Positions 33,877 through 64,000 of a DNA stretch of 64,000 nt are shown here, one piece after another. Numbering within the stretch: the stretch's first letter is position 1; each line of letters starts with the position of its first letter. The DNA lies in assembly GCA_027946365.1 (NCBI GenBank), contig JAPEUQ010000019.1:682001-746000 (forward strand), in the 5' to 3' direction. Both the position numbers and the translations under genes were made by a program. Under the pieces are notes generated by a model. It ran no database searches, was not told the origin of the DNA, and worked only from the letters and a program-made list of their open reading frames with translations. This DNA is from Kalmusia sp. IMI 367209 (taxonomy: Eukaryota > Ascomycota > Dothideomycetes > Pleosporales > Didymosphaeriaceae).

Positions 33877-35382
33877 ATGGCCACAAAACCAAAAACGCGG
33901 CACGACCTCGACGATACCGCCCTGGGGCAATACCTTCAAAACCACCTCCCAGACCTCAAACTTCCCATTATATCAACAAAGATTGGCTACGGGCAGAGCA
34001 ACCCTACCTATTTTGTCGACGACGCAATTAAAACGCGCTACATACTGCGGAAGAAACCTTCGGGGACGATCATCTCACCTGTAGCGCATCAGGTAGATCG
34101 CGAGTACCGCGTTATCAAAGCACTGGGAAGCGTAGAAGGATTTCCAGTACCCAGGGTGTATTGCTTGTGTATGGACGATGGAGTCATTGGGACAGCATTT
34201 TATGTGAGTTCATATTCCAATCTTAAGACGTACCTTAAACCCATCCCTCCATCCCTGTCTAGCAATTCCAATGTCTTGGGTCAGTACCCTCCAACTGTGA
34301 TATGTTGCTCTTCCTCTGTTATACCTTAGGGACTTCTTTTTACACGCCCTTTAAGTCACAAAGCACGAGAGGAACCGCCGCTACTCTATCGTTTATTATT
34401 CTTCGCAGCTACCCACATCTTCCACCACAAATCTAGTATAGTGATACTCTGGGTAAAGTAAGTCTCTAACGTACACAGGTAATGGAATACGTCAAAGGCC
34501 GCATTATAACCTCCCCAGACCTCGATTCGCTCTCCCCAACCGACCGCCGCGCCGCCTGGTTCTCCGTCATCCAGACACTAGCCTGGCTGCACTCCATCGA
34601 CGCCGACGCCATCGGCCTCTCCTCCTTTGGCAAGAAGACCAATTTCTACGCCCGCCACTGCACCACCTTCTCCCGTATCGAAGCCCAGCAGTCCAAAGTC
34701 AAGAACATCACGACAGGACAAGCCCTTGGCCGCGCACACCCCTCTTTTGACGAGGTCATCGCTTATATTCGAACTAACCTCCCTTCGGATCGCTCTTCTA
34801 TCATTCACGGCGACTACAAGTTCGATAATATCGTTTTGCATCCTACGGAGCCGCGTGTCATTGCGATTCTAGACTGGGAGCTGAGTACGATTGGGCATCC
34901 GCTAATGGACGTGGTGTATGTTACAGGGCCGTATTGGAATAGGGTTAGTAGAGTAGGTATGGGGCCAGGAAAGGCGAGAGACGATCAGGGCCGGGAGGTG
35001 TACGATGATGGAAAGAGAAAGGAGAGTGGGATGCCGGAGATGAAAGAGCTATTGGATGAGTACGCGAAGATTGTGGGATGGGATCCGAGAGGTGATCGGT
35101 GGGAAGTTGCGAAAGTGTTCCATCTAATGAGGGTACGTGTCGTGGTTCTTACGAGGTCGAGGTGTGAGCTGGAGCAGCGAATAAGGTACAGTCAAATGTG
35201 CAAGACTAATCATTCTATAGGGCGGGACTATCAGTCATGGCATCCAAGCACGAACCATCAGCGGACAAGCAAGCAGCGAATTCTCGCACGTCTACTTTGA
35301 GAATACGCGAAGAAGTCTTGACGGTGCTCTAAGAATGGTGCGGGAGCTAAAAGAAAAACAGAACTCGAAGAGCACATTGTAA
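33877..35382 (+). CDS. Aminoglycoside-phosphotransferase-like kinase (ACAD10/11 N-domain type)
   Basis: Three exons (33877-34203, 34479-35132, 35221-35382) encode 380 residues. The protein kinase-like fold of the APH family is evident: a substrate/ATP loop IGYGQSNPTYFVDD, Lys in YILRKKPSG, the hinge VMEYVKGR, the catalytic loop HGDYKFDN (residues 219-226), and the Mg2+-binding ILDWE (Asp241). It ends with SHGIQARTISGQASSEFSH, typical of the stand-alone fungal relatives of the N-terminal domain of ACAD10/ACAD11, which phosphorylate 4-hydroxy acyl-CoAs in the animal enzymes. The substrate in fungi is not established. The first intron is 275 nt, about five times the local norm; the second is 88 nt. 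Confidence 0.92.
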
Positions 35383-35553
35383 AACACCCAGCAAAAATAG
35401 AAGTCCGATAGAGATACTTATCGGCTACAATGAGCCAGCGTGCTAGGCAGTAAGGTCCAACCTAGCTTTTTGTACGCCAAATGGATGTTTCGCCATATAT
35501 AGATGCCTAAGGAAAAAGAAGTGGAGAAGACAACAAAAAGAACAACCTTACGC

Positions 35554-35688
35554 GGCGTGATGGCGGAGTGGTTATCGCGCAAGACTAGAAATCTTGTTCC
35601 ATCGGGAGGTACGTACCCTATTGGAAAGCCCCAAGCCTGCATCCCCCCTGACCTTTCTCTAGCGTCAGTTCAAATCTGGCTCACGTCG
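35554..35688 (+). tRNA. tRNA-Ser(AGA) with a 54-nt insertion in the variable arm
   Basis: The acceptor stem GGCGTGA (35554-35560) pairs with TCACGTC (35681-35687), with G as discriminator base. The D stem is GCG/CGC. The anticodon stem CAAGA/TCTTG encloses CTAGAAA, giving anticodon AGA at 35587-35589. The T arm GTCAG-TTCAAAT-CTGGC is intact. Box A (TGGCGGAGTGG, from 35561) and box B (GTTCAAATC, from 35668) are good. The anticodon loop has no intron. Between the anticodon and T stems lie 67 nt, where Ser tRNAs have about 13. Removing 35609-35662 leaves TTCCATCGGGAGC, a normal class II variable arm, and an 81-nt tRNA. Whether it is made into functional tRNA is unknown. Confidence 0.88.
35609..35662 (+). 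other. Intron-like insertion with spliceosomal signals inside the tRNA
   Basis: The 54 nt begin GTACGT, contain CTGAC ten nucleotides before the final AG, have a pyrimidine-rich stretch (CCTTTCTCT) and end TAG. Donor, branch point and acceptor match the mRNA introns of neighbouring genes, and the length fits too. Its 5' junction overlaps a 10-bp palindrome (GGTACGTACC). The canonical tRNA splicing endonuclease cuts at 37/38 and would not be expected to act here. Confidence 0.75.
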
Positions 35689-35712: not shown

Positions 35713-35729
35713 TTTTCTTTTTGTTTTTT
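35713..35729 (+). terminator. RNA polymerase III terminator after tRNA-Ser
   Basis: Three T runs (TTTT, TTTTT, TTTTTT) start 25 nt downstream of the tRNA end. Runs of four or more T on the non-template strand stop Pol III. Their presence suggests the gene is still transcribed by Pol III despite the insertion. Confidence 0.8.
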
Positions 35730-62065: not shown

Positions 62066-64000
62066 GGGGGTCTGGGTTAATTTATAGTGGCAGCGGCTCG
62101 GCCATATAGGTTGAAGCAGTTTGGCGGGGGTACAATTGCATGCAGATGTGACGAGTGCCGCGATGGAGGGCCCACGTCGAGAACCGCCGTCAAACGAGCA
62201 GAACCGGCTCTCGGAACGCGGCAGGGGTTCACGTAAAGCTTAGCCGCACGTGAAGAGAGCGTGCACGGCCAGTAATATCAGGTTGCAGCCTCGTAGACAG
62301 CACGTTGAGTAACAGCCCCAATGCATGTCATTTGCAGGCCGCGCATTCCCCGCCGGTTACGTTTCATGATCCGGCCTTGCCTTATGACGTTCATCGATTG
62401 CGAGGATTTTCAGCTGCAGCGCCTTGGGGCACGGCTCTAACCTATGTCCTGATACGGTATGGCGGTTCGCTTACATACTAGCGCGCCGAGGTCTTCCCGC
62501 AAACTCCAAACTTTTATCCTCCAACTGCTTCCACGCACAACATCAGCGTCTTTTTGGGCAACAATTCGCTGTCCGCGTCAAGCGTGCCGTTCCGCCAGAA
62601 CATGATCTGAAAATGAGCTCTTCGGCACAAGAGGCGCTCTGCTAATTTATTACCGGTAAGCTGCTATATCTCTTCTGTCCTCTCCTACGCTTTCGCTTCA
62701 TGATGAACCTACATCGACCATCATATCTTTAGGAAGAGCCGGAAAAGGTATGGCTAGTATCGACAAATGCTACGCCGTCGCTGCTTATAATTAGGTCTCT
62801 GAGAGCAACTCGTTTCCAGCCTGTTCTGCATCACTCAACGAGGGTAGTAGCTAATGTTAGCACTTTAGGTTTCCTCCTAGATCCATTTCGATGGCACATA
62901 TGATTGTTTATGTCTTTCTCCTCGCGATTCGAGCCACTGTTCTCCCTTGATCACATTTGTGCATGTGAAGCGGCCATACTACGAAACATGCACAGACCTA
63001 TACGATGAAAGAAACCCGTGCCATAATCGGTTCGTTAGCGACCTGTATTATGGACATGTGTTGTTGCTAGACATACTGCACAGCTATAATGAGTAGCTTG
63101 AGGTTTAAGAAATGGTATTACCTAGGGGTTTCCCCAGAAAGGATGATTCTACCTATTTTACCATCTACGCAGATACATGTTATCTTGCCCGGCGAGAGTT
63201 CAGCTTGCATGGTATCCTGAATGTGATGGTAGTAGGACCACGAATTCTATTGACCTGTGTACAAAGGCAGGGTCCTCATGTCCTATGATCCTAGGTTGTA
63301 CGGCCGGGTATTACTCATTCAGCCGTTGTCCACATCTGCTCTGCTTCGTAGTCGATACCAAGAAACACAAAACCTGGCCGAATGCCTGCGATCCAAAATT
63401 GAACCGTGTATCTCTTGCGCCGTGTCTTGTCTCACCTCGCAATATACTTCCTTCTCTCGCACCGAACTCCATGCCTCACTAAGGTATGAATCTGATAAAA
63501 CTAAATCCGAACAGCACGGTGCTTTATACATCCTTGAGATTACTTTGCCATCTTGCCGCAACCAAGAATCCTAACATTCCATACTAAGCTTACGATGTTG
63601 AGATACTAGGTGACAGTCCGTATTGTTGCAGCTCGGAGAAAAAGCACTTAGACGAGGCATTCATAGGACCAACGTCAAGTTTGACCTCGAGGGTTCCGGG
63701 CATGGTTGTTGGTGACTGATGAAAGAGAAGAGAAAAGCACTCGAGCAGCTTATTATTGCCCCGACGGAGGCCACGTGCATCGCAATCTCCTTTTGGCCCA
63801 TCCGGATTGGAGATGCATCCCGGTGCACTATTGTTCCCAGCAACACATGTCAATTAATATCTCACGATCTTGTCGCGTTGAATAGGCTGAGCCGTATGTC
63901 CAATCCACTACTTCAACCCTCGCTTGCTATCCTACTCCGTGGTATTGTACCCCTAAACAAGCAGGCCGCGTCATCTGAGCGAGACAGCTGCCTCTGTTGA
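62066..64000. other. Intergenic region to the right edge
   Basis: About 1.9 kb. The first few hundred bases should be the phosphotransferase promoter. Open frames are short and on both strands, without a recognisable domain. No RNA gene or repeat was found. Confidence 0.35.

What the first reader, a model, noticed from the sequence alone, without database searches (positions are those of the whole stretch)
35554..35688. tRNA-Ser(AGA) interrupted in the variable arm by a spliceosomal-type intron
The sequence shows a complete tRNA-Ser only when 35609-35662 is removed. The 54 nt carry GTACGT, CTGAC and CTCTAG, the signals of the mRNA introns in this window. Nuclear tRNA introns in fungi normally lie between positions 37 and 38 and are removed by the tRNA endonuclease; the anticodon loop here is uninterrupted. 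Either a Pol III transcript reaches the spliceosome, or the gene is read by Pol II, or an introner-like element landed in a tRNA and killed it. Pol III boxes and terminator are intact. I know of no described precedent but could not search. Alternative: a giant variable arm, since TTCCA (35597) can pair with TGGAA (35622).
Basis: partly seen in the sequence, partly recalled or inferred. Interest (0 to 1): 0.88.

Follow-up and report, generated by a model that had tools for sequence, protein, structure and literature searches.

The report
Fungal tRNA genes with mRNA-type introns
In this fungus several tRNA genes, including every histidine and aspartate tRNA gene that was found, are interrupted outside the anticodon loop by short inserts that look like messenger-RNA introns, which suggests that the spliceosome, and not only the tRNA-splicing enzymes, is needed to make tRNAs.

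Summary
Window 35554-35688 is a tRNA-Ser(AGA) gene (RF00005, 47.4 bits). Its 54-nt insert, 35609-35662, lies between positions 47 and 48. Two uninterrupted Ser(AGA) paralogs exist in the genome; one equals the joined exons except for 4 of 81 bases, including a compensatory acceptor-stem change. The genome matches Kalmusia sp. IMI 367209.

It is not alone. Seven further genes found carry such inserts: His(GTG) 2 of 2 (53/54), Ala(CGC) 2 of 2 (25/26), Asp(GTC) 3 of 3 (52/53). All 8 inserts are GT...AG, 50-71 nt, with a CTRAY branch motif whose A lies 9-12 nt from the 3' end; after excision ARAGORN names the right tRNA in 8 of 8. Of 41 introns that ARAGORN calls in other tRNA genes here, 1 can be set as GT...AG and none has CTRAY. 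The Ala copies have identical exons but largely unalike inserts that keep the splice signals. No uninterrupted His or Asp gene was found, in an incomplete survey.

Best explanation: spliceosomal introns in Pol III-type tRNA genes. Splicing itself is inferred; no RNA data were available. Ten paper searches found no description.

The parts
35496..35501 (+). TATATA upstream element, 53-58 nt before the tRNA
   Evidence: Read directly. TATA-like words lie at about -75..-25 in 32 of 58 other nuclear tRNA genes of this genome against 3.9% of 5000 random window positions.
35554..35608 (+). 5' exon of tRNA-Ser(AGA): acceptor 5' strand, D arm, anticodon arm, most of the variable arm
   Evidence: RF00005 alignment; BLAST 96% to the uninterrupted paralog over 55 nt
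35561..35571 (+). A box TGGCGGAGTGG (internal Pol III promoter), intact
   Evidence: Identical in both uninterrupted Ser(AGA) paralogs; the name A box is from general knowledge
35587..35589 (+). Anticodon AGA; anticodon loop uninterrupted
35609..35662 (+). 54-nt GT...AG insert between tRNA positions 47 and 48, read as a spliceosomal intron
   Evidence: Absent from the paralogs; signals; first 24 bases unique in the genome
35609..35614 (+). 5' splice site GTACGT
   Evidence: the same hexamer opens the intron of the protein gene just upstream, 35133-35220
35648..35652 (+). Branch-point motif CTGAC, A at 35651
35660..35662 (+). 3' splice site TAG
35663..35688 (+). 3' exon: end of variable region, T arm, acceptor 3' strand, discriminator G
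35667..35677 (+). B box AGTTCAAATCT, intact
   Evidence: the name B box is from general knowledge
35713..35729 (+). T runs (4, 5 and 6 T), probable Pol III terminator; the first starts 24 nt after the tRNA
   Evidence: In 58 other tRNA loci the distance to TTTT runs from 0 to 48 nt, in 51 of 58 it is 15 or less
35133..35220 (+). Probable ordinary protein-gene intron just upstream (GTACGT...GACTAAT...TATAG, 88 nt), for comparison
   Evidence: Removing it joins an open frame that ends at a stop at 35380-35382

Best explanation
The gene is a tRNA-Ser(AGA) gene of Pol III type that has gained a spliceosomal (U2-type GT-AG) intron in its variable arm, and it is one of at least eight such genes, in four tRNA families, in this genome. 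Shown from sequence: exact GT...AG inserts with branch motifs at positions 25/26, 47/48, 52/53 and 53/54; correct tRNAs after excision; A and B boxes kept; no TTTT inside any insert that would end Pol III transcription. Inferred: Pol III copies the whole gene; the nuclear spliceosome removes the insert; only then can the D/T-arm elbow form, the ends be trimmed and, in Asp and Ala, the separate canonical 37/38 intron be cut out by the tRNA endonuclease. For Ser(AGA) the gene adds to two normal copies. For His and Asp no uninterrupted gene was found, so removal would be essential.
For: 8 of 8 inserts at non-canonical positions are GT...AG, 50-71 nt, with CTRAY whose A is 9-12 nt from the 3' end, none with TTTT. 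Intact, ARAGORN finds no tRNA in 6 of the 8 genes, calls one Ala gene Val, and names the other Ala(CGC) with a misplaced intron; with the insert removed it calls Ser(AGA), His(GTG) x2, Ala(CGC) x2 and Asp(GTC) x3. Background for the signature: 7 of 127,893 54-mers, and 0-4 of about 127,900 at each of five other lengths. Of 41 introns that ARAGORN calls in other tRNA genes of this genome, 1 can be set as GT...AG within 3 nt, none with CTRAY. Ala copies: exons identical, inserts 23/57 aligned bases alike with different lengths, yet both GTAAG...CTRAY...TAG at the same place. Ser: all 4 differences to the C12 paralog keep structure, including a G7-C66 to A7-U66 double change; 3.5% of random 4-substitution draws keep all checked pairs and fixed sites, 1.6% hold a compensatory pair. 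His: BLAST of the whole gene finds 2 loci, both interrupted. Uninterrupted T arms: 26 genome places lie within 2 mismatches of the joined His T arm; I looked at 21 of the 26. The 6 exact ones are Ala genes, and the Asp-type arm occurs only in two 3'-half fragments. Automated test: 9 of 22 candidate GT-CTRAY-AG excisions near 112 B-box segments restore a tRNA (7 genes), against 3 of 22 random excisions, one of them the same Asp gene.
Against: No RNA data. Two intact Ser(AGA) genes exist, so this one could be dispensable or dead. The tRNA survey is not exhaustive: one search scored 63 of 1270 candidates, the list ended in contig C23, 5 of the 26 places were not fetched, and an uninterrupted His or Asp gene with a very different T arm could be missed. 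Free-length splice signatures are only about twofold enriched in the window (19 against 7 and 9.3). The Asp 3' splice site is AAG, not the usual YAG. Asp and His inserts are more alike between copies than expected for free introns (46-47 of 51; 57 of 71). His has mismatches U27-C43 and U13-U22 in both copies. U6 genes of this genome lack an intron (4 hits, 47 of 2494 candidates scored), so there is no local precedent. I recognised the His, Ala and Asp inserts by eye after tRNA and T-arm searches, so some ascertainment bias is possible; two further tRNA-like genes with long inserts near the anticodon loop (L127, L152) lack this pattern and were not counted.
Confidence: 0.8

Rival explanations
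1. The Ser(AGA) gene is a pseudogene into which an intron-like piece fell; the two other copies do the work.
For: Two intact paralogs. A review says short insertions in D and T arms of eukaryotic tRNA genes mostly affect one of many synonymous genes and are supposed to be pseudogenes (PMC4090602, passages read).
Against: All four substitutions preserve pairing, with one compensatory pair; promoter boxes, upstream TATA and T runs are present. The same kind of insert occurs in all His and Asp genes found, which cannot all be dead.
Confidence: 0.12
2. The tRNA lies in the 3' UTR of the upstream protein gene (stop at 35380-35382, same strand). Pol II read-through transcripts are spliced as mRNA, and the tRNA is cut from them or is a by-product.
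For: Same strand, about 170 nt downstream of the stop codon; the protein gene has an intron with the same GTACGT site.
Against: The gene keeps its own TATA element, A and B boxes and T runs. The inserts leave box B readable: the last bases of the His and Asp introns complete it (AGTTCGATTCC, AGGTTCGATTCC), as expected if Pol III factors read the unspliced gene.
Confidence: 0.1
3. Non-canonical tRNA introns of the endonuclease (bulge-helix-bulge) kind, as in Archaea, red algae and nucleomorphs.
For: Archaeal tRNAs have introns at 25/26 and 53/54 too (PMC4090602, passages read).
Against: In the one bulge-helix-bulge geometry tested, the central helix at these borders has 0-3 of 4 pairs in every placement, never 4; GT...CTRAY...AG in 8 of 8 is unexplained by this mechanism.
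Confidence: 0.05
4. A tRNA-Ser with a giant variable arm that is kept in the mature molecule.
For: TTCCA (35597) can pair with TGGAA (35622).
Against: Both paralogs have a variable region equal in length to the joined form. The lowest-energy fold of the whole 135 nt does not use that pairing. It would not explain His, Asp or Ala.
Confidence: 0.02

Closest known systems
mRNA-type introns in fungal U6 snRNA genes (S. pombe U6)
   Same: Pol III transcript with an intron removed by the spliceosome (PMC8917221, passage read; it cites Tani and Ohshima 1989 and 1991, which I did not read)
   Different: A snRNA, not a tRNA; there the intron sits in a gene of the splicing machine itself. The U6 hits in this genome have no intron.
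Canonical nuclear tRNA introns (tRNA endonuclease, position 37/38)
   Same: Introns in nuclear tRNA genes; Asp and Ala(CGC) here carry one of these as well
   Different: Here the insert is at 25/26, 47/48, 52/53 or 53/54, with GT-AG ends and a branch motif and no bulge-helix-bulge in the geometry tested.
Ectopic tRNA introns of Archaea, Cyanidioschyzon merolae and nucleomorphs
   Same: Introns outside the canonical place, in Archaea even at the same positions 25/26 and 53/54 (PMC4090602, PMC3978253, passages read)
   Different: Those are bulge-helix-bulge substrates, or of unknown mechanism at 3-24 nt in Guillardia; these are 50-71 nt with spliceosomal signals.
Introner-like elements of Dothideomycetes (recalled; no call)
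   Same: Short spliceosomal introns gained in fungi of this class
   Different: They are multicopy; the first 24 bases of the Ser intron occur once in the genome at up to 3 mismatches.

Membership tests
Spliceosomal U2-type introns | GT at the 5' end and AG at the 3' end, at the exact borders of the insert | tested here: met
   8 of 8 genes; Ser borders fixed by the paralog; equivalent placements listed
Spliceosomal U2-type introns | Branch motif near the 3' end | tested here: met
   CTRAY in 8 of 8, A 9-12 nt from the 3' end
Spliceosomal U2-type introns | Splice signals conserved while the interior drifts | tested here: inconclusive
   Clear in Ala (23/57 with identical exons). Not so in Asp and His, whose inserts are still 80-92% alike
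Spliceosomal U2-type introns | Removal through a lariat by the spliceosome | not testable with these tools
Functional tRNA-Ser(AGA) gene | Cloverleaf with Ser variable arm, AGA anticodon and Pol III boxes after excision | tested here: met
   expression not tested
Canonical (endonuclease) tRNA introns | Position 37/38 | tested here: not met
   Anticodon loop uninterrupted in Ser; inserts at 25/26, 47/48, 52/53, 53/54
Bulge-helix-bulge introns | 4-bp central helix between two 3-nt bulges at the borders | tested here: not met
   0-3 of 4 pairs in all placements of 8 genes, one geometry tested
Group I or II self-splicing introns | Conserved catalytic core | tested here: not met
   No Rfam match other than tRNA and Afu_198 in the window at gathering scores; 50-71 nt is far too short
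Introner-like elements | Many near-identical copies in the genome | tested here: not met
   One copy of the intron's first 24 bases at up to 3 mismatches; Ser insert only

The most novel reading that the evidence does not exclude
In this fungus making essential cytosolic tRNAs requires the spliceosome. All His and Asp tRNAs pass through it, and Asp and Ala(CGC) precursors need two unrelated splicing machines in a fixed order (spliceosome first, tRNA endonuclease second). [quoted passage not shown]
Probability: 0.65. Interest if true: 0.93.

Novelty: new variant of a known kind. Interest (0 to 1): 0.88.

Why it matters
A 2026 review, like common teaching, separates tRNA splicing from the spliceosome entirely (PMC13149111, passages read). 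If tRNA genes can host spliceosomal introns, then Pol III transcripts are open to the spliceosome more widely than U6 shows, spliceosomal introns can be gained in tRNA genes, and tRNA gene finders that know only 37/38 introns in eukaryotes will report such genes as missing or as pseudogenes; ARAGORN missed six of the eight here. The Asp and Ala genes make the order of tRNA maturation directly testable, because the T or D arm is broken until the GT-AG insert is gone.

Tried and rejected
Introner-like origin of the Ser insert: rejected, single copy. Giant variable arm: rejected. Bulge-helix-bulge: rejected in the one geometry tested. A fourth Ser(AGA)-like place at C29:314465: a 5' fragment only. 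Relatives of the interrupted genes in public collections: five patterns in viral contigs gave 0, 0, 7, 0 and 0 stretches, the seven having no GGTTCGATTCC nearby (check), and one genome-contig scan gave 0; these collections hold viruses and prokaryotes, so this says nothing about other fungi. Search for uninterrupted His genes with short patterns: one search gave 4 places, the two known genes and two that are not tRNAs by eye; one search was too loose to be useful (83 matches, control 137); one search gave 59 matches (control 80), of which only the two known genes looked tRNA-like, judged by eye from the short stretch printed. U6 as a local precedent: no intron in 4 hits. Folding of the precursors did not reproduce the cloverleaf, also not for the uninterrupted paralog, and was not used as positive evidence. 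Of the 20 and 9 B-box loci fetched, the only new interrupted tRNAs of this kind were two Asp genes; the rest were ordinary tRNAs, non-tRNAs, or L152. ORF lists around the His genes and the translation of the neighbour's intron were not informative.

Papers: ten searches in an open-licence library without preprints found no report of spliceosomal introns in tRNA genes. Passages, not whole texts, were read in PMC3978253, PMC8450103, PMC13149111, PMC8917221, PMC11782384, PMC4090602 and PMC4033280; of all other listed papers I saw the listing only. The word start 'spliceosom' occurs 0 times in the main text of both PMC4090602 and PMC4033280.

Full report
What is there. The window lies in contig C11 (682001-746000) of a 42.8-Mb assembly in 30 contigs. 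A protein of the window is 96% identical over its whole length to a protein of Kalmusia sp. IMI 367209 whose contig is 816,027 bases long, the length of C11, so the genome is that fungus (Pleosporales, from recall) or nearly so. Rfam's tRNA model matches 35554-35688 at 47.4 bits with all arms present and a long insertion in the variable region. ARAGORN finds no tRNA in the window.

The empty site. The same genome has two uninterrupted Ser(AGA) genes, C12:3035466-3035546 and C3:97006-97086. Removing 35609-35662 gives an 81-base sequence that differs from the C12 copy at 4 positions: 7 and 74 (G-C to A-U in the acceptor stem), 48 (variable loop) and 65 (purine 57 of the T loop). All preserve pairing and fixed sites; 3.5% of random four-substitution draws do so, and 1.6% contain a compensatory pair. 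The insert begins GTACGT, ends CTCTAG and has CTGAC with the A at 35651. Three placements of the insert are equivalent; only one gives GT...AG.

It is a class. The RF00005 search of the genome (61 matches, 63 of 1270 candidates scored) contained two more oddities, both tRNA-His(GTG): C27:659754-659893 and C1:1650189-1650330, with 69- and 71-nt inserts between positions 53 and 54. A search for an uninterrupted His T arm at up to 2 mismatches gave 26 places, of which I looked at 21. The six exact matches share one tRNA-Ala body: L018, L047, L119 and L120 are Ala(AGC) with an unbroken D arm (ARAGORN mislabels L018 as 'Asp (atc)'), while L117 and L118 are Ala(CGC), with a 50- or 53-nt insert between 25 and 26 besides a canonical 37/38 intron. 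Two of the 2-mismatch places are 3'-half fragments of tRNA-Asp (C23:298931, C26:487053), and beside one of them, and through a box-B search, three complete tRNA-Asp(GTC) genes were found: C23:298552-298696, C1:4068332-4068476 and C8:109677-109821. Each has a canonical intron and a 51-nt insert between 52 and 53. The two fragments hold the only uninterrupted Asp-type T arms among the 26 places.

What the inserts share. In 8 of 8 genes the insert is GT...AG, 50-71 nt long, with a CTRAY motif whose A lies 9-12 nt from the 3' end, and without TTTT. ARAGORN gives no tRNA for six of the intact genes, calls one Ala gene Val and names the other Ala(CGC) with a misplaced intron; after excision it calls Ser(AGA), His(GTG) twice, Ala(CGC) twice and Asp(GTC) three times. 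In the window's own DNA the full signature occurs in 7 of 127,893 54-mers and in 0-4 of about 127,900 segments at each of five other lengths. With free length the signature is only about twofold enriched in the window (19 places against 7 in the reversed control and a mean of 9.3 in ten random sequences), so the weight lies on the fit to exact insert borders. In 58 other tRNA loci of the genome that I had fetched (interrupted genes, mitochondrial loci, L127, L152 and non-tRNAs left out beforehand), ARAGORN introns, some probably misplaced; 1 can be set as GT...AG within 3 nt and none holds CTRAY. An automated pass over 112 distinct B-box segments of the held loci tried 22 GT-CTRAY-AG excisions; 9 restored a tRNA (7 genes, the His genes twice); 22 random excisions of the same lengths gave 3 gains, one of them the Asp gene itself. 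The eighth gene, Ala C1, is not counted there because ARAGORN already names it Ala(CGC) unspliced.

Evolution. The two Ala(CGC) genes have identical exons, poorly alignable flanks and inserts with only 23 of 57 aligned bases alike, yet both inserts sit at the same place and keep GTAAG, CTRAY and TAG. That is the pattern of working spliceosomal introns. The Asp inserts (46-47 of 51) and His inserts (57 of 71) are less diverged than the upstream flanks that could be compared; in Asp they are also less diverged than the canonical introns of the same genes. I cannot explain that; gene conversion or a second role are possible.

How it most likely works. A and B boxes are kept in all eight genes. 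In His and Asp, where the insert falls into box B, the last bases of the intron complete it (AGTTCGATTCC, AGGTTCGATTCC). The Ser gene also has TATATA at 35496-35501 and T runs at 35713-35729. TATA-like words are found upstream of 32 of 58 tRNA genes against 3.9% of random places. I infer that Pol III copies the gene, the spliceosome removes the insert in the nucleus, and end trimming and the tRNA endonuclease follow. The order is an inference from structure: without the intact T or D arm the elbow cannot form. Precedent for Pol III plus spliceosome is S. pombe U6 (PMC8917221, passage). The 5' splice site GTACGT is also used by the protein gene just upstream, whose probable intron 35133-35220 ends 333 nt before the tRNA and restores an open frame when removed.

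Function of this copy. With two intact Ser(AGA) genes the Ser gene may be dispensable, and a dead gene is not excluded for it alone. For His and Asp the case is stronger: every copy found is interrupted, and cells need both tRNAs. The survey is incomplete, so 'every' means every one found. One search listed only its first places, ending in contig C23.

Known or new. Reviews describe ectopic introns in Archaea, C. merolae and nucleomorphs, removed by endonuclease or by unknown means, and one says that short D- and T-arm insertions in other eukaryotes are mostly supposed to be pseudogenes (PMC4090602; PMC3978253; passages only). A 2026 review treats tRNA splicing as spliceosome-independent (PMC13149111, passages). 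Ten searches of an open-licence library found no description of spliceosomal introns in tRNA genes; subscription papers and preprints were mostly not covered. I rate it a new variant of a known kind: spliceosomal introns are known, and another Pol III gene, U6, has them, but I know of none in tRNA genes. No fungal DNA other than this genome could be searched, so how widespread it is remains open.

Noticed in passing
G000 C23:1747455-1748250, minus strand (L127, L134, L152): Two adjacent tRNA-like genes with long inserts near the anticodon loop that share an inverted-repeat element (ACACAAGTTCTGATTGA...); in L152 it is a 76-nt palindrome, 72 of 76 letters equal to its reverse complement. Probably a small palindromic mobile element.
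   Followed up: partly
G000 C23:298821-298977 (L125) and C26:486943-487099 (L126): Two 3'-half copies of tRNA-Asp with an uninterrupted T arm, both preceded by GCAGTATCTGTTTTTATAC. They could be retrocopies of a spliced tRNA-Asp or remnants from before the insertion.
   Followed up: partly
G000 C29:314465-314506 (L082): Isolated 5' half of tRNA-Ser(AGA), 98% identical over 42 nt, with no Rfam tRNA match in the 3-kb locus.
   Followed up: partly
Asp loci L132, L137, L138 and His loci L011, L012: The GT-AG inserts of the Asp genes are more conserved between copies than the canonical introns of the same genes, and the His inserts keep a hairpin stem (CCTCT/AGAGG). No explanation found.
   Followed up: partly
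window 62686-62815, + strand: Rfam match to the C/D-box snoRNA Afu_198 (42.4 bits, gathering 40).
   Followed up: no
G000 C28:665708-665780 (L131): A short U6-like gene (73 nt, 62.1 bits), beside three U6 hits of 98-104 nt; none has an intron.
   Followed up: no
G000 C23:1755612-1755659 and C22:18726-18773: A 48-base stretch of contig C22 (the 28.7-kb, tRNA-rich, probably mitochondrial contig) occurs identically in C23, so probably a nuclear copy of mitochondrial DNA.
   Followed up: no
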